A DNA stretch of 64,000 nucleotides, taken from NCBI RefSeq assembly GCF_029643425.1, contig NZ_CP119106.1, forward strand, positions 682,001 to 746,000. Reading direction: 5' to 3'. Source of the stretch: Isoptericola sp. AK164. GTDB taxonomy: Bacteria > Actinomycetota > Actinomycetes > Actinomycetales > Cellulomonadaceae. The notes under the pieces are model-generated. The model made no database searches and was not told the origin of the DNA. It saw only the letters and a program-made list of their open reading frames with translations. This document shows positions 58,255 through 64,000 of the stretch, piece by piece (positions within the stretch are counted from its first letter, which is position 1; each line of letters opens with the position of its first letter). The translations under genes and the position numbers were made by a program.

Positions 58255-58288
58255 AACGGCCCGGCACCCTCGAGGGTGCCGGGCCGTT
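58255..58288 (+). terminator. Strong hairpin terminator after rplA
   Basis: A perfect 17+17 bp inverted repeat, AACGGCCCGGCACCCTC paired with its complement, begins 17 bp after the rplA stop and is followed by TCTGCGT. It has no long T-run, as is usual for intrinsic terminators in GC-rich actinobacteria. It separates the ribosomal genes from the sigma-CHAT unit. Confidence 0.85.
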
Positions 58289-58496
58289 CTGCGTCCCCGC
58301 CGAGATGTCCGGCTCGACGTGTATCAGGAGCAGGGGCGCCGCCTCCCTGGTGATGACACTGCCGAGCGGAGGGTGAAATCTCATGGGTGCGGGCACGGGG
58401 GAGCGTGGGCGGCGGGACGCCGCCCTAGGCTCGTCGGGTCCGCCTGAGTCGGCTACCACCGGGTCGGGGAGCATCACGCACACCACGCGAGGAGCC

Positions 58497-59105
58497 ATGA
58501 CGCGTCCAGCCGAGACGTCCAGCCTGGGAGACCGAGCCGCCGTGGCGGTGATCGAGTACCGCGAGGGGCGGCCGGGTGCGATGACCGACTTCGTCCGGGA
58601 GGCGTCACCGTTGCTGTGGCGCACGGTCAGGTCCCAGGGCGTCTCGCGGGAGGCGGCCGACGACGTGGTGCAGCAGACGTGGGCCGCGCTCGTGCGTCAC
58701 GTCGACTCGATCAGCGAGCCGAAGGCGACCCTGAAGTGGCTGCTCGTGACCGCACGCCGTGCGGCGTGGGAGGCGGTCCGCAAGGACCGGACCGACGACA
58801 TGCGCCGCACCGGGCTGCCGGACGACGACGCCGAGACCGCGACGACCCTCCCGGACCCCGCGCCGGGTCCCGAGGCGGAGCTGCTGCGCAACGAGCGCGA
58901 CCGCACCCTGTGGGCTGCGCTGCGCGAGCTGCCGGAACGGTGCCAGGAGCTGCTGCGACTCGTCTCGCTCGCCGACCGTCCGGACTACCGGTCCATCTCC
59001 GCCGCGATCGGGATGCCGATCGGGAGCATCGGCGCCACGCGGGGACGGTGCCTGGCCAAGCTGCGCACCGTCCTCACCGAACGAGGGGAGACCTCATGGA
59101 CATGA
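58497..59105 (+). CDS. Small sigma-70-family (ECF-like) sigma factor of the S8-CHAT unit
   Basis: 202 aa from ATG 58497. Region 2 lies at about residues 20-95 (SREAADDVVQQTWAALVRHV, KATLKWLLVTARRAAWEAVR) and region 4 at about 135-195 (LRELPERCQELLRLVSL, SAAIGMPIGSIGATRGRCLAKL). Start choice is open: ATG 58383, with GGAGGG nine bases upstream, would add 38 residues of non-conserved sequence, while 58497 has GAGGAG at only two bases. No anti-sigma zinc-finger gene follows; the next gene is the 165-aa companion. It probably drives its own operon. Confidence 0.85.
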   Translation: MTRPAETSSLGDRAAVAVIEYREGRPGAMTDFVREASPLLWRTVRSQGVSREAADDVVQQTWAALVRHVDSISEPKATLKWLLVTARRAAWEAVRKDRTDDMRRTGLPDDDAETATTLPDPAPGPEAELLRNERDRTLWAALRELPERCQELLRLVSLADRPDYRSISAAIGMPIGSIGATRGRCLAKLRTVLTERGETSWT

Positions 59106-59593
59106 CCGAGTTCGACGACGTGCCCGGTGCCGACGTACCGCTGGACGCGTCCGACGTCGCGCTGCTCGCGCGCGTCGCGGAGCTGGACGACCGCCTCGAC
59201 CCCGCCCCGCACGGGCTCGCCGAGCGTGCGCTGTTCGCCATGACGCTCGCCGGCCTGGAGGCCGAGGTCATGGAGCTGCAGGTCGTCGAGACCCCGGTCG
59301 GGTCGGTCCGCAGCGACGCCCCGGTGGAGACGCGCACCATCACGTTCACCCACGAGCGGTTGACGGTGATGATCGCCCTGTCGGCGGGCGCGGCCGCCGG
59401 GACGGTCAGGATCGACGGCTGGATGGCACCGGCCGAGGCCCTGGAGATCGTGCTGCGCCGACCCGACGAGGAGCGCGCCACCCTGTCCGACGAGGACGGA
59501 CGTTTCGTCCTCGAGGACGTCCCCCGGGGGCCGGCGAGCCTTCTGGTGCACCAGGGCGAGACGCCGGTGACGACGCCCGTCATCGAGCTGTAG
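59096..59593 (+). CDS. Sigma-factor companion protein, unknown function
   Basis: 165 aa, overlapping the sigma gene by 10 bp; a second ATG at 59102 is possible. The first 60 residues are acidic (AELDDRLDPAPHGLAERALF), the middle is a beta-rich segment and the last 35 residues (LSDEDGRFVLEDVPRGPASLLV) look like a carboxypeptidase-regulatory/CnaB-type beta-sandwich edge. There is no transmembrane helix and no HxxxCxxC zinc motif of the usual anti-sigma proteins. By position it may hold or release the sigma factor, or link it to the proteases. That role is inferred. Confidence 0.6.
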   Translation: MDMTEFDDVPGADVPLDASDVALLARVAELDDRLDPAPHGLAERALFAMTLAGLEAEVMELQVVETPVGSVRSDAPVETRTITFTHERLTVMIALSAGAAAGTVRIDGWMAPAEALEIVLRRPDEERATLSDEDGRFVLEDVPRGPASLLVHQGETPVTTPVIEL

Positions 59594-59660
59594 CCCGTCG
59601 ACCGAGGACTGATCAGGACATCAGGGCCGGTTCGCCGTGCCCGGACTCGAGGAGGAGCAC

Positions 59661-61400
59661 GTGAGCGAGACGACCATCGAGGACGCGGCCGGCGGGCGGC
59701 GCCCGGTCCGTCACCTGGACCCCGACCGGGTCCGACGGAGCCCGGGCGCGTCCCGGGTCCGGGAGACCGACTACGTGGCCGACCGGCTCATCGTCCGGGG
59801 CGGGCTGCCCGAGGACCTGCGCCGCCGTGTCGTCCCGGAGGCCGCCGCGCTCGGTGCCGGCGGGCAGGGAGCGATGGTCGCCCTGGACGACTGGGCCGGC
59901 GAGGGCGAGCCGACGAGCTGGCTCGACGGCGTGCGGCGGATCGCGACCGAGATGGGGTACCGCGTCGTCTACGACGGCACCCTGGGCGACCTCGCCGGGG
60001 ACGAGGTCGACGACGAGACGTTCGGCTACGCACTGCGCCTGGTCCCGCTGCGCGACGACGACGTCGAGGTCGACGTCTGGCAGGTCCTGGAGCGGATCGT
60101 CGGCGAGCTCGGTGCGCTCGACGAGCGTGACGACGCCGACGAGGGAGACCGTCCGACCCCCCGCGTCGGCTTGGACCACGTGCTGCGGGCGCAGCGTCAC
60201 CGCTCCACCCCGCTGCCGTTCGTGCCGGTCGCGCGGCCACGGAGCACCCCGCTGCCGTTCGGCGCGATCGACGAGTACGGGGTCGCCGGCAGCGGCGGTC
60301 TGACACCGGTGGGATACCTGGGAGCGCCGCCCCGCCGGTCGCTGGCCGACGGGCCGACGCCGTGGCACGCCGCCGACGGGACGCGGCGACCCGTGGTCGC
60401 CGTCGTCGACACGGGTGTCGGGTCGCACGACTGGTTCGGTGACTACGACCCGCACGACCCGCAGGACAGCGCCGTCGTGGTGCGCACGGCGACGCTCGAC
60501 GGCCGTCCGGTGGGCACCTTCCCCGTCCCGCGACACGCCACCGCGGACGCGGACTTCGGCGGCCTGAGCGTCGACCCGTTGACGGGTCCGCTCGATCCCG
60601 TGGCCGGTCACGGCACCTTCATGGCCGGTGTCGTGCACCAGGTGTGCCCCGACGCCGTACTGATGGCCGTGCGCGCGTTCGGCGGGTCCGGCGACATCCC
60701 CGAGTGGGAGGTGCTGCACACCCTGTGGCGGCTGCTGCGGTTCCACCGGCGCGGTGTCGCCGGTGACCCGGGGTACCACCAGGTCGACGTCGTCGTGCTG
60801 GCGATGGGCTACTACCACGAGCAGCCGGAGGACTACGGCTACGACGGGCCTCTGCGCCGCGTGCTGCGCGCGTTGCGCCGGGCCGGGGTGGTCGTCGTGC
60901 TCGCCTCGGGCAACGACGGGACCACCCGTCCGATGTTCCCGGCCGCCTGGGCACCGCACCTGCAGCAGGACGCCGACGCGCTTCGACCCGTCGACGGAGG
61001 CCAGCTCTCGGACCGGCACCCACCGCTGCTCGTCGCCGGTGCGGCCAACCCGGACGGCACGACCGCCATCTTCAGCAACGACGGTCCGTGGGTGACGTGC
61101 ATCCGCCCGGGGGCCGCCGTGCTGTCGACGATGCCCACGACGCTCGACGGGCCCGAGACCCCGGAGGCCTCGGTCGCCGAGCGTCTCCGGCCGGGGACCC
61201 GGGCCACGGTCGACCCCGACGACTTCACCGGCGGTTTCGCCACGTGGAGCGGGACGTCGTTCTCGGCCCCCTACCTCGCGGGCGAGGTCGCTGCCGCCCG
61301 GCTGCGGACGGGCGCCCGCGGCGAGGTGGGGGTCGACGGTGCGTGGGATGCTGTGACCAGGACGGTCGCACTCGACCGGGCGGGCGGGGACGGTGCGTAG
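59661..61400 (+). CDS. Cytoplasmic S8 (subtilisin-like) serine protease
   Basis: 579 aa from GTG 59661, with AGGAGGAG about five bases upstream. The triad is Asp250 (VVAVVDTGVGSHDW), His317 (VAGHGTFMAGVVH) and Ser533 (TWSGTSFSAPYLAG), with oxyanion Asn418 (LASGNDGTTRP). Residues 1-180 are an N-terminal domain with no signal peptide, so the enzyme should be cytoplasmic, unlike most subtilisins. The linker holds two copies of RSTPLPF (181-187 and 194-200) just before the protease core, possible processing sites. It lies between the companion and CHAT genes, in one transcript. Confidence 0.9.
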   Translation: MSETTIEDAAGGRRPVRHLDPDRVRRSPGASRVRETDYVADRLIVRGGLPEDLRRRVVPEAAALGAGGQGAMVALDDWAGEGEPTSWLDGVRRIATEMGYRVVYDGTLGDLAGDEVDDETFGYALRLVPLRDDDVEVDVWQVLERIVGELGALDERDDADEGDRPTPRVGLDHVLRAQRHRSTPLPFVPVARPRSTPLPFGAIDEYGVAGSGGLTPVGYLGAPPRRSLADGPTPWHAADGTRRPVVAVVDTGVGSHDWFGDYDPHDPQDSAVVVRTATLDGRPVGTFPVPRHATADADFGGLSVDPLTGPLDPVAGHGTFMAGVVHQVCPDAVLMAVRAFGGSGDIPEWEVLHTLWRLLRFHRRGVAGDPGYHQVDVVVLAMGYYHEQPEDYGYDGPLRRVLRALRRAGVVVVLASGNDGTTRPMFPAAWAPHLQQDADALRPVDGGQLSDRHPPLLVAGAANPDGTTAIFSNDGPWVTCIRPGAAVLSTMPTTLDGPETPEASVAERLRPGTRATVDPDDFTGGFATWSGTSFSAPYLAGEVAAARLRTGARGEVGVDGAWDAVTRTVALDRAGGDGA

Positions 61401-61410
61401 GAGGTAGGAG

Positions 61411-64000
61411 ATCGACAGGGCGGCGCTCGACGAGCGGCTCCGCGAGGCGCAGGAGCACAACGCTGCCTCGCGGGTCCGTCCGGCCTCGCGTGCCTACCGG
61501 TCGCTGCTGCGCGACGTGTCGCCGCTCGACCCCGCCCTGCACGGCGCCTGGGTGGTCGACCTGCGGGTGCGGGCGCTCGTGGGCGAGGCCTCCTGCACCT
61601 ACGGGCTCTCCGGAGACCTCGACGGTGCCCGACGGCTCGTGGCCGAGGCGCTCGTCGTGGCCGAGGCGGGCGGCCACCACGAGCTGTCCGCGGTGGCGCA
61701 CGGCCAGGACGGTCTGCTCCTGCTGAGGTCCGGCGACGCGCGAGGTGCCGCCGCCGCCTTCGACCGCGCGCTGTCGGCGGCCGACCCCGAGAACCACCGC
61801 GACCTGGCCGTCCTGCACATCAACCGCGGTGCGGCTGCCGGCGAGCTGCGCGACCTCGACGCCGACCTGCGCCACCACCAGATCGCTCTCCACCACGCCC
61901 GCCTCGACGGCAACGACCGCTATGCCGCGTTCGCGTCGTTCAACATAGGTTTCGCCTACTACCTGCGCGGAGACTTCCACCGCGCGCTGCGGAACATGGA
62001 GGAGTCGTCGGCGCTCCAGCCCGAGGGGCCGGACGGCTGGTCCGAGGTGGGACGCGCCCAGGTCCTCCTCGACGCGGGACTCGTCACCGAGGCGGAGAAG
62101 GTGCTCGCGGACTCCGCCGACATCCTCTCGGCCGAGGACCTGACCGGCGAGATGGCCGACGCTCTCCTGGCGCGGGCGCGCTGCGCGATCCTGCTGCGCC
62201 GACCGGAGGAGGCGCTGCGGTGGGCCGGGCGGTCGCGCCGGGCGTTCGCGCGCGTGGGCAACGACTCCTGGGCTCTGGCGGCACGGATCACGGCGCTGGA
62301 GGCCAGGCTCGCCCTGGACCGTGAGCGCGGGACGGCGCGCCGCACCGCGCTGCGTCGACGGCGCGACGACGCCCTCGCCCTGGCGTCGGAGGGCGGCGAC
62401 GAGTCCGCGGCACCGAGCCGCGAGGCCGCCGTGGCGGCCCGGCTGCTCGCCGCGGAGTGGTCGTTGCTCGCCGGCGACCACGACCGGGCGGCCGAGATCG
62501 TGGGCGAGGTGCCGCGGCTCGGGAGCAGCCCGCTCCCGCTGCGCATCCATCACGAGTCGGTCCGCGCCCAGGTGGCGTTCGCCGGCGGCGACCGGCGTCG
62601 CGGCCTGCTGGCCGTCCGCCGCGGCCATCGCGTGCTCGCTGACCACCGAGCACGTCTCGGCTCGGTCGACACGGTCACCGCCGCGGCGGCGCACGGGACC
62701 CGGATCGCGCGCGTCGACGTCGAGGCGGCGCTGGCCACACGGCGACCGCGGGCCGTCTTCGACGCCCTGGAGAGGGGGCGAGCGGCGTACGCGGGAGCCG
62801 CTCGGGTGCGCCCACCCGACGACGAGCAGCTGGCCGAGCTCCTGACCATGGCCCGTGCGGCCGCGGAGGACGCCCGGGAGCTCGCGACGAGCACGGACCC
62901 CGGCGACCGGGCGCGGGCCGCGAAGCGGTCGGCGGACGCCCATCGGCTGCAGCAGCGAGCGCGACGACGGTCGTGGCAGCTCGCGGGGACGGGGGACCGG
63001 ACGATACCCGAGCCGACGACCGCCCGTGACCTGATCCGAGACCTGCGTGCGGCGTGCTCGAACGCCGTCGTGGTGTCCTACCTGCTGACCGAGCGCGTGA
63101 CGGCGGTGCGGCTCGACGCGACGGGCGCGCGGCTGGTCGAGCTCGGCTCGTCGGCCGAGGCGGCCGAGCTGGCCCGCCGGGTCCGTCAGGACGTCGACGT
63201 GCTGGCCAACGGGCTCATCCCCGCCCCGATGCGCGAGGTGGCCGCGGCCTCGGCCCGGCGGTCCCTCGAGCGGCTCGACGACCTGCTGCTGGGGCCGCTG
63301 GAGGTGCACGGACCGCTGCACGTCGCGGCGCGCGACGGCCTGCTGGCGGTGCCGTGGGCGTCCCTGCCGTCCCGCGCGGGGATCGCGACCAGCGTCGACT
63401 CGTGGGTGGCACGCTACGGACCGGTCGACAGCAGTCGCCGGGTCCGGACGGCGCGCGCGCTGGTCGTCGCGGGGCCCGGTCTCGCCGCGGCAGACGACGA
63501 GGCGCGGCTCGTCGCCGAGGAGTGGGCGACGGCCGATCCGCGGACCGGGGAGCGCGCGACGTGCGCGGCCGTCCGCGACTCCCTCGCCGACGTCCAGGTG
63601 GTGCACCTCGCCGCGCACGGCGTCCACGAGCCCGACAACCCGCTGTTCTCCTTCGTCCGGCTCGCGGACGGACCGTTGTACGCGCACGAGCTGGACGGCG
63701 TGAACCTGCGGGGGACGGTCGTCGTGCTGTCCGCCTGCGAGGTCGGACGTGCCTCCGTGCGTCTGGGCGGCGAGCCGCTCGGGCTGACGAGCGTCCTGCT
63801 GCGCCTCGGGGCGCGAGCGGTCGTCGCGGCGGTCGCGCCGCTGCGGGACGAGGTCGCGGCACGCGTCATGCCGCGGCTGCACTCAGCGCTGCGCGACGGC
63901 CGGGAACCGGCCACGGCGTTGGCCCTCGCCGTGGCGTCGGAGCCCGAGCCCGTCCCCCTCGTCTGCTTCGGCCCGCTGGCCGTCGAGCGCGACGTGCAGG
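61411..64000 (+). CDS. TPR-CHAT caspase-like protease (3' end outside window)
   Basis: Open for 863 codons to the window edge. Residues about 20-560 form helical repeats resembling TPRs (LRVRALVGEASCTYGLSGDL, FASFNIGFAYYLRGDFHRAL). The C-terminal CHAT domain has the caspase-like dyad His736 (HLAAHGVHEPDNPLFSF) and Cys776 (VVVLSACEVGRAS). No ATG, GTG or TTG lies between an in-frame TAG (61405) and GTG 61516. An ATC at 61411 has a perfect AGGAGG (61399-61404) six bases upstream, overlapping the S8 stop, so a non-standard ATC start is proposed. GTG 61516 is the fallback and would lose 35 residues. Confidence 0.88.
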   Translation, partial: MDRAALDERLREAQEHNAASRVRPASRAYRSLLRDVSPLDPALHGAWVVDLRVRALVGEASCTYGLSGDLDGARRLVAEALVVAEAGGHHELSAVAHGQDGLLLLRSGDARGAAAAFDRALSAADPENHRDLAVLHINRGAAAGELRDLDADLRHHQIALHHARLDGNDRYAAFASFNIGFAYYLRGDFHRALRNMEESSALQPEGPDGWSEVGRAQVLLDAGLVTEAEKVLADSADILSAEDLTGEMADALLARARCAILLRRPEEALRWAGRSRRAFARVGNDSWALAARITALEARLALDRERGTARRTALRRRRDDALALASEGGDESAAPSREAAVAARLLAAEWSLLAGDHDRAAEIVGEVPRLGSSPLPLRIHHESVRAQVAFAGGDRRRGLLAVRRGHRVLADHRARLGSVDTVTAAAAHGTRIARVDVEAALATRRPRAVFDALERGRAAYAGAARVRPPDDEQLAELLTMARAAAEDARELATSTDPGDRARAAKRSADAHRLQQRARRRSWQLAGTGDRTIPEPTTARDLIRDLRAACSNAVVVSYLLTERVTAVRLDATGARLVELGSSAEAAELARRVRQDVDVLANGLIPAPMREVAAASARRSLERLDDLLLGPLEVHGPLHVAARDGLLAVPWASLPSRAGIATSVDSWVARYGPVDSSRRVRTARALVVAGPGLAAADDEARLVAEEWATADPRTGERATCAAVRDSLADVQVVHLAAHGVHEPDNPLFSFVRLADGPLYAHELDGVNLRGTVVVLSACEVGRASVRLGGEPLGLTSVLLRLGARAVVAAVAPLRDEVAARVMPRLHSALRDGREPATALALAVASEPEPVPLVCFGPLAVERDVQ

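What the first reader, a model, noticed from the sequence alone, without database searches (positions are those of the whole stretch)
58497..64000. Sigma factor, companion, cytoplasmic S8 protease and TPR-CHAT protease in one unit
Four genes follow the ribosomal terminator on one strand, with overlaps or gaps under 70 bp: a small sigma factor, a 165-aa companion, an S8 protease with no export signal, and a TPR protein ending in a CHAT caspase-like domain with His and Cys intact. Two proteases of unrelated folds next to a dedicated sigma factor suggest a proteolytic relay whose activation changes transcription or kills the cell. CHAT and S8 domains occur in known bacterial conflict systems; I know of no characterised sigma-S8-CHAT pathway.
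Basis: partly seen in the sequence, partly recalled or inferred. Interest (0 to 1): 0.85.

Follow-up and report, generated by a model that had tools for sequence, protein, structure and literature searches.

The report
Two-protease switch for a sigma factor
A four-gene set seen in many actinobacteria (a gene switch, its likely inhibitor and two unrelated protein-cutting enzymes) looks like a chain reaction in which one enzyme wakes the other to release the switch; in about half of the relatives examined the second enzyme carries a repeated peptide 'barcode' of unknown role.

Summary
In detail: an ECF sigma factor, a 165-aa companion, an S8 protease without an evident export signal and a TPR-CHAT protease, tightly packed between rplA and rplJ. 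It is a conserved actinobacterial module. Of 94 companion places in 105 neighbourhoods, 86 have the sigma within 2.5 kb, 79 the CHAT and 72 an S8 or S1 protease within 8 kb (loci drawn by companion or CHAT searches). In a sample of 198 genomes of the order, 35 of 35 companion genomes (four weak partial matches dropped) carry the CHAT gene. New: (1) sigma-companion and CHAT-protease behave as two sub-modules; (2) in some genomes an unrelated trypsin-like S1 protease stands in for S8; (3) 33 of 69 S8 and 4 of 6 S1 proteins carry a short tandem peptide array, in S8 just before the catalytic domain, whose codons have drifted almost to the random expectation while the peptide units stay alike. The window's own S8 has only a degenerate two-copy version. 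Likely mechanism (inferred): companion = anti-sigma; CHAT recognises the array and activates the protease, which destroys the companion. The cell-death/defence reading has little support here: fixed chromosomal slot in the family, no plasmid match.

The parts
58256..58289 (+). G+C-rich hairpin after rplA (terminator-like) that precedes the unit
   Evidence: read directly; also present in 3 congeners
58366..58389 (+). 24-bp block upstream of the sigma gene, almost unchanged in the window species and three congeners; its 19-base core has one site in the genome within 3 mismatches (this one); promoter role not shown
58497..59105 (+). ECF-type sigma factor (202 aa)
   Evidence: TIGR02937 75.5 bits; an in-frame ATG also exists upstream (58383)
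59096..59593 (+). companion (165 aa): two N-terminal helices plus C-terminal Ig-like beta domain in a predicted model; proposed anti-sigma
   Evidence: (CarboxypepD_reg E 7.8e-4, below its cut-off)
59661..61400 (+). S8 (subtilisin-like) protease, 579 aa; catalytic Asp codon 60408, His 60609, Ser 61257
   Evidence: PF00082 47.7 bits; residues aligned
60165..60182 (+). VGLDHV motif ending the N-terminal domain of the S8 protein
   Evidence: its His aligns in 36 of 36 sequences, but 29 of these were picked with a pattern that asks for it
60201..60260 (+). degenerate two-copy repeat (RSTPLPF...RSTPLPF) at the place where relatives carry hexapeptide arrays; below the array criterion
61411..64000 (+). 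TPR-CHAT protease (869 aa; ends at 64020, outside the window); likely ATC start; catalytic His codon 63616, Cys codon 63736
   Evidence: PF12770 95.3 bits; N-terminus shared with congeners; dyad

Best explanation
A cytoplasmic two-protease switch for a dedicated ECF sigma factor. The companion, encoded directly behind the sigma, holds it inactive (anti-sigma; inferred). The TPR-CHAT protein is the sensor protease (signal unknown; inferred). When active, it recognises the peptide array in the S8 (or S1) protein and releases that protease from a silent form; in S8 the array lies between the N-terminal domain and the catalytic domain, where a zymogen would be cut (position shown; cleavage inferred). 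The freed protease destroys the companion and the sigma starts transcription (inferred). Shown: linkage, sub-modules, swapped protease, intact catalytic residues, array conservation. In the window's own species the array is reduced to two degenerate copies, so recognition there would rest on those or on the rest of the linker.
For: Linkage in 94 companion and 82 CHAT places; co-occurrence in 35 of 35 companion genomes of 198 searched (four weak partial matches dropped). The sigma is followed by the companion on one strand in 86 of 94 places, in 78 of these 86 with at most 100 bp from sigma stop to the start of the companion match (one odd value of -727 included), while S8 and CHAT change place and strand; anti-sigma genes usually lie near their sigma gene (PMC8103513, passage). 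Where sigma-companion stand without CHAT away from contig ends (8 loci), 6 of the 8 genomes carry the CHAT elsewhere, in 5 beside an S8. In the 20 kb seen of G540, three companions, two CHAT and two S8 genes share one sigma: companions go with the protease sets too. Five S1-type genomes (G130, G144, G116, G376, G428) show no S8 of this family at E<=1e-10, and their arrays resemble those of S8 in related clades (PFTQ/PFTE vs HPFTQS; PHYQ/PYYQ vs NPAYQ/NPGYQ; resemblance judged by eye, not tested), so the array is more likely read by a shared partner than by the protease itself. Array codons are identical in 644 of 1025 comparisons against 595.8 expected from codon usage, while 1051 of 1112 residues agree. 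The unit motif was found only in its own gene in 3 of 3 source genomes. TPR-CHAT control of an ECF sigma through an inhibitor is experimentally known in Craspase.
Against: No interaction, cleavage or transcription was tested. 36 of 69 S8 proteins have no array by the criterion used, the window's own and Streptomyces-like ones included. Arrays were found by peptide identity, so the 1051 of 1112 is partly built in; the informative number is the codon one. A few arrays (L073, L098, L103, L039) still look like recent DNA duplications. The companion has no recognised anti-sigma domain and no confident fold match (best E 1.2e-2; model pTM 0.51). The S8 model is poor (pLDDT 46.7) and an I9 propeptide got no sequence support. 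Four S8 proteins of family f34 look secreted (by eye), against a cytoplasmic relay there. Eight companion places have no sigma within 2.5 kb; L116, L117 and L123 have sigma, companion and CHAT but no S8/S1 in the stretch; L052 and L090 have both S8 and S1. In G573 and G569 no CHAT was found.
Confidence: 0.4

Rival explanations
1. Craspase-like: the TPR-CHAT protease cuts the companion directly and frees the sigma; S8/S1 is a second effector or finishes degradation of the cut companion.
For: Csx29 (TPR-CHAT) cuts Csx30, which inhibits CASP-sigma (PMC10028731, passages); the CHAT protein has a weak local match to the Csx29 model (E 1.5e-4); L116, L117 and L123 show sigma, companion and CHAT without S8/S1 nearby.
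Against: CHAT keeps company with S8/S1 where sigma-companion is elsewhere; arrays sit in the protease, not in the companion.
Confidence: 0.25
2. A defence or cell-death system: the relay is triggered by invaders, the protease kills or stalls the cell, the sigma amplifies expression.
For: Caspase, trypsin-like peptidase and ECF sigma neighbourhoods were predicted as apoptosis/immunity systems (EACC2; PMC8195603, passages); protease swapping and lineage-specific arrays look like diversification; one genus holds a distant version in the same slot (L066).
Against: PADLOC matches are weak; no plasmid match; fixed chromosomal slot in the family; among the 40 largest clusters of neighbouring ORFs in 81 loci none recurs in more than 11 loci, and those are rplA, opposite-strand frames or local neighbours.
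Confidence: 0.2
3. The arrays are only elastic spacers or assembly stickers, and the proteases are targets rather than controllers of the sigma.
For: Copy number varies from about 3 to 28 and unit sequence differs between lineages; targets are often encoded next to their sigma (general knowledge).
Against: A mere spacer need not keep peptide units alike while synonymous sites have drifted near to random; CHAT and S8/S1 stay paired away from the sigma.
Confidence: 0.15

Closest known systems
Craspase / type III-E CASP (Cas7-11, Csx29, Csx30, CASP-sigma)
   Same: TPR-CHAT cysteine protease genetically linked to an ECF sigma factor and to the sigma's inhibitor (here the inhibitor role of the companion is inferred)
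   Different: No Cas7-11 or CRISPR genes in the 19 kb examined; Csx29 model far below cut-off (20.7 vs 300 bits); companion is 165 aa without NCBIfam match; a second, interchangeable protease, often with peptide arrays; found across an actinobacterial phylum sample
EACC2-caspase systems with ECF sigma factor and TPR protein (PMC8195603, passages read)
   Same: caspase-fold peptidase, trypsin-like peptidase and ECF sigma in one neighbourhood
   Different: there the TPR protein is DUF1822 and the constant parts are EACC2 and a caspase; no S8, companion or arrays are mentioned in the passages read
ECF sigma factors released by regulated proteolysis of an anti-sigma (RseA/DegS/RseP type; named in PMC10028731, otherwise recalled)
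   Same: proposed logic: a protease cascade destroys the inhibitor
   Different: the classical inhibitor is membrane-anchored; here no membrane segment was noted in the four window proteins (by eye)
Subtilisin zymogens (recalled)
   Same: N-terminal domain before an S8 catalytic domain
   Different: no recognisable I9 propeptide; peptide array at the junction in about half; no evident secretion signal in the window protein

Membership tests
ECF sigma factors | sigma-70 regions 2 and 4 over a curated model | tested here: met
   TIGR02937 75.5 bits vs 42.9; PF04542 over its cut-off, PF08281 (region 4) below it
CHAT proteases | CHAT domain with His-Cys dyad | tested here: met
   PF12770 95.3 vs 24 bits; His in 81 of 82 (1 gap), Cys in 82 of 82
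Peptidase S8 | subtilase domain with Asp, His, Asn, Ser | tested here: met
   PF00082 47.7 vs 21.8; Asp 60 of 69 (8 gaps, 1 Ala in a fragment), His, Asn, Ser 69 of 69
Craspase / type III-E CASP | Csx29 subfamily of TPR-CHAT | tested here: not met
   NF041237 20.7 bits vs 300
Craspase / type III-E CASP | Csx30-type inhibitor/substrate | tested here: not met
   companion has no NCBIfam match at E<=1 and is 165 aa; Csx30 of D. ishimotonii runs to residue 565
Craspase / type III-E CASP | Cas7-11 effector and crRNA at the locus | tested here: not met
   the genes recognised around it in 19 kb are nusG, ribosomal and rpo genes; the rest of the genome was not searched for cas genes
Anti-sigma factors (companion) | gene next to its sigma gene | tested here: met
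   86 of 94 places; 78 of 86 within 100 bp
Anti-sigma factors (companion) | known anti-sigma domain, or binding to the sigma | tested here: inconclusive
   no family or fold match; binding not testable here
Known anti-phage defence system | match to a defence system model | tested here: not met
   PADLOC best: subtilase E 6.7e-5 (20.5 bits), BovA E 0.012, DpdI E 0.021
Subtilisin I9 propeptide | I9-like inhibitor domain before the catalytic domain | tested here: inconclusive
   no Pfam I9 match in 36 members at E<=10, no PDB profile match; only the order of strands and helices in a poor model suggests it

The most novel reading that the evidence does not exclude
A new class of signalling system: a cytoplasmic protease cascade (TPR-CHAT to an array-tagged S8 or S1 zymogen) that gates an ECF sigma factor, with the tandem peptide array acting as a lineage-specific password that lets one sensor protease command unrelated effector proteases.
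Probability: 0.35. Interest if true: 0.88.

Novelty: new variant of a known kind. Interest (0 to 1): 0.72.

Why it matters
It would be a CRISPR-free counterpart of Craspase in many actinobacteria, and a bacterial case of a caspase-fold protease activating a second protease. The peptide arrays give a direct handle: they predict what the sensor protease binds or cuts. It also makes testable what a group of actinobacterial ECF sigma factors responds to.

Tried and rejected
I9 propeptide for the S8 N-domain: suggested by eye (DHV before the junction, order of strands and helices), not supported by Pfam or PDB profile searches. Conserved promoter: a 24-bp block upstream of the sigma is kept in four species, but the only genome copy within 3 mismatches is the locus itself, so no regulon could be proposed. 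Repeats as a genome-wide tag: not seen in three source genomes at exact-match level, one unit plus part of the next, or two units. A fifth constant gene: none among the 40 largest clusters of mechanically called neighbouring ORFs; a kinase-like cluster occurs in 6 of 81 loci. S8 structure: low confidence, only the subtilisin fold was recovered. Four weak companion matches (G007, G101, G115, G157; partial, no sigma or CHAT beside them) were dropped from the co-occurrence count. In the sigma tree L158 was a wrong frame and L162 is the window's own sigma; module sigmas are not strictly one clade because the f34 group and L088 attach near the other ECFs on long branches. The regular-expression residue check (75 of 82 CHAT, 56 of 69 S8 passing) was too strict and was replaced by the alignment. 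The S8 search also held one unrelated genome (G090), without match.

Not checked: ECF group in the published classification (paper not held); strain-level variation; complex prediction (the tool folds single chains); cas genes in the rest of the genome. Literature rests on ten searches of an open-licence library and on passages of seven papers (PMC5994538, PMC10028731, PMC7159879, PMC8195603, PMC8103513, PMC7730460: six papers in fact, none read whole); most subscription papers are missing, so an earlier description may exist.
Full report
Observation. The window ends inside a four-gene unit on the + strand. The sigma gene (58497-59105) overlaps the companion gene (59096-59593) by 10 bp; the S8 gene starts 67 bp later (GTG at 59661 behind GAGGAGG; 59637 is an alternative) and ends at 61400; the TPR-CHAT gene follows after 10 bp and ends at 64020, read from the genome stretch L002 (L002 position + 56000 = window position). 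Upstream stand nusG, rplK and rplA, downstream rplJ, rplL, rpoB and rpoC. Sigma, S8 and CHAT models are over their curated cut-offs; the companion has only sub-threshold matches.

Is it more than chance neighbours? The companion alone, searched in 198 genomes of the order, was found in 39; four of these are partial weak matches that I dropped. A separate search of 198 genomes of the order with a TPR-CHAT profile found 47 genomes, among them all 35 remaining companion genomes. The profile was built from CHAT proteins of companion loci, which favours this outcome for close relatives. Of the 12 CHAT genomes without a companion, a companion profile found one beside the CHAT in 9; G033 has two CHAT-S8 pairs without it, G016 is cut by a contig end, G032 was not fetched. 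In the phylum sample 46 of 396 genomes match the companion profile at E<=0.001 (the weakest rows are partial). Over 105 neighbourhoods, drawn by companion or by CHAT searches, 94 companion places have the sigma within 2.5 kb in 86, CHAT within 8 kb in 79, S8 or S1 in 72, sigma, CHAT and protease together in 68; of 82 CHAT places 75 have the companion, 74 the sigma, 73 a protease within 8 kb. Away from contig ends (82 companion places) all are present in 65. These are not unbiased rates, but neither the sigma nor the protease was used as bait for these loci.

Two sub-modules. Sigma and companion stand on one strand, companion behind, in 86 places, while S8 and CHAT occur before, after, or on the other strand; L116 shows a different order. 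Eight sigma-companion pairs stand without CHAT away from contig ends (L054, L082, L093, L097, L100, L102, L105, L107); six of these genomes carry the CHAT elsewhere, in five of them beside an S8, in the sixth (G497) both lie at ends of different contigs; for G573 and G569 no CHAT was found. Further CHAT genes away from sigma (L201-L204) also have an S8 or S1 beside them. In the 20 kb seen of G540 (L091) three companions, two CHAT and two S8 genes share one sigma. I take this to mean that the companion binds the sigma and is also the point on which the protease pair acts. This is inference.

Catalysis. CHAT His is present in 81 of 82 (one gap) and Cys in 82 of 82; S8 His, Asn and Ser in 69 of 69, Asp in 60 of 69 with 8 gaps and one Ala in a fragment.

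The swapped protease and the arrays. In L038, L039 and L044 (other genera of the window's family) the S8 is replaced by a trypsin-like S1 protein with a C-terminal PFTQ/PFTE array; L101 and L202 show the same with PHYQ/PYYQ decamers. These five genomes show no S8 of this family at E<=1e-10. L052 and L090 have both kinds. S8 arrays mostly have units of six residues (31 of all 37 arrays have period 6), start 5-16 residues after a His in a [DENSC]H motif (33 of 33) and, where the catalytic Asp was recognised (26 of 33), end 29-51 residues before it. By a shuffle-controlled criterion 33 of 69 S8 and 4 of 6 S1 proteins have one. Between successive units 1051 of 1112 residues are identical; as arrays were found by peptide identity this is partly built in. 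The telling number is that only 644 of 1025 codons are identical, against 595.8 expected if codons were drawn at random from the genes of the same locus. So most arrays are not fresh duplications: the peptide is held while the DNA has drifted. A few (L073, L098, L103, L039) still look recent. Related species differ in all units together (GYGDGV/GYGSGV; PFIETN/PFIATN/PLIETN). In three source genomes the unit motif occurs only in this gene, and not in four other genomes scanned each time. S1 and S8 of related clades share motif elements in two cases, which points to a reader common to both, most simply the TPR-CHAT protein; PFT also occurs in less related S8 arrays, and the resemblance was not tested statistically. 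The window's own S8 and those of three congeners have only two degenerate copies of STPLPF-like sequence, below the criterion; this weakens the array argument for the window itself.

Companion. A model from 9 sequences (pLDDT 76.5, pTM 0.51) has two helices (18-34, 41-63) and an Ig-like beta domain; no fold match is convincing. Pfam gives a sub-threshold carboxypeptidase-regulatory-like match.

Sigma. In a tree of 77 module sigmas and 15 loci of the own genome, 13 other own ECFs form one clade (98/99). One locus is the window sigma itself and one a wrong frame. The f34 group and L088 attach close to the outside clade on long branches, so strict monophyly is not shown.

Mobility. In the window's family the module is in 10 of 15 sampled genomes, in all ten between rplA and rplJ. 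Six genomes without it (five of the family, one of f12) have rplA and rplJ close by, from about 0.3 to 1.9 kb, without any tblastn trace of sigma, companion, S8 or CHAT; the one weak S1-profile hit there (L189, E 6e-5) lies on a chitinase-like ORF. L066 holds a distant version, partly inverted, in the same slot, and its sigma groups with loci from outside the order: exchange at a fixed slot is likely. No plasmid record matches the CHAT protein at E<=1e-20 and one phage record matches 18% of it.

Mechanism. Best supported: companion holds sigma; TPR-CHAT senses a signal, recognises the array-bearing protease and activates it at the junction; the protease removes the companion. Shown: composition, linkage, residues, arrays, swapping. 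Inferred: every interaction and cut. The closest tested precedent is Craspase, where Csx29 cleaves Csx30 and thereby relieves inhibition of CASP-sigma (PMC10028731, passages read). PMC8195603 (passages read) predicts caspase neighbourhoods with an ECF sigma and a TPR protein. The ECF review PMC8103513 (passages read) lists five modes of ECF control, soluble anti-sigma factors among them, and no such protease pair in the passages seen. Searches showed no description of this module; the library lacks most subscription papers.

Verdict. A real and broadly conserved system, close in logic to Craspase but with different parts, and with an unexplained peptide array that selection seems to hold. The conflict or suicide reading is possible but has little evidence here.

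Noticed in passing
window 61411-61413; L034, L035: The TPR-CHAT gene appears to start at ATC behind a Shine-Dalgarno sequence, with an in-frame stop just upstream and no ATG/GTG/TTG; ATC is at the same place in the window species, L034 and L035, while L033 has GTG. A rare start codon, perhaps to keep the protease scarce.
   Followed up: partly
L091 (G540:C77:22001-42000) and L089 (G291:C7:12001-32000): Tandem copies of the module: in L091 three companions, two CHAT, two S8 with different arrays (HPLYDG and PFTSGG) and one sigma in the stretch seen.
   Followed up: partly
L066 (G044:C10:39500-56500): A distant, partly inverted version of the module in the same rplA-rplJ slot as its relatives, as if exchanged in place.
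   Followed up: partly
L036:13876-15405 and L189:2138-3469: Chitinase-like ORFs (by eye) also sit in the rplA-rplJ slot, which seems to accept insertions.
   Followed up: no
L083, L084, L085, L087: In family f34 the S8 next to CHAT begins with what looks like a signal peptide (read by eye), unlike the window's S8.
   Followed up: no
L060, L048, L052: Adjacent array units use different codons at more than half of the synonymous sites (7 same, 17 different in L060), as if scrambled against slippage.
   Followed up: partly
window 58366-58389: 24-bp block upstream of the sigma gene, nearly unchanged in four species and with one site in the genome within 3 mismatches of its core.
   Followed up: partly
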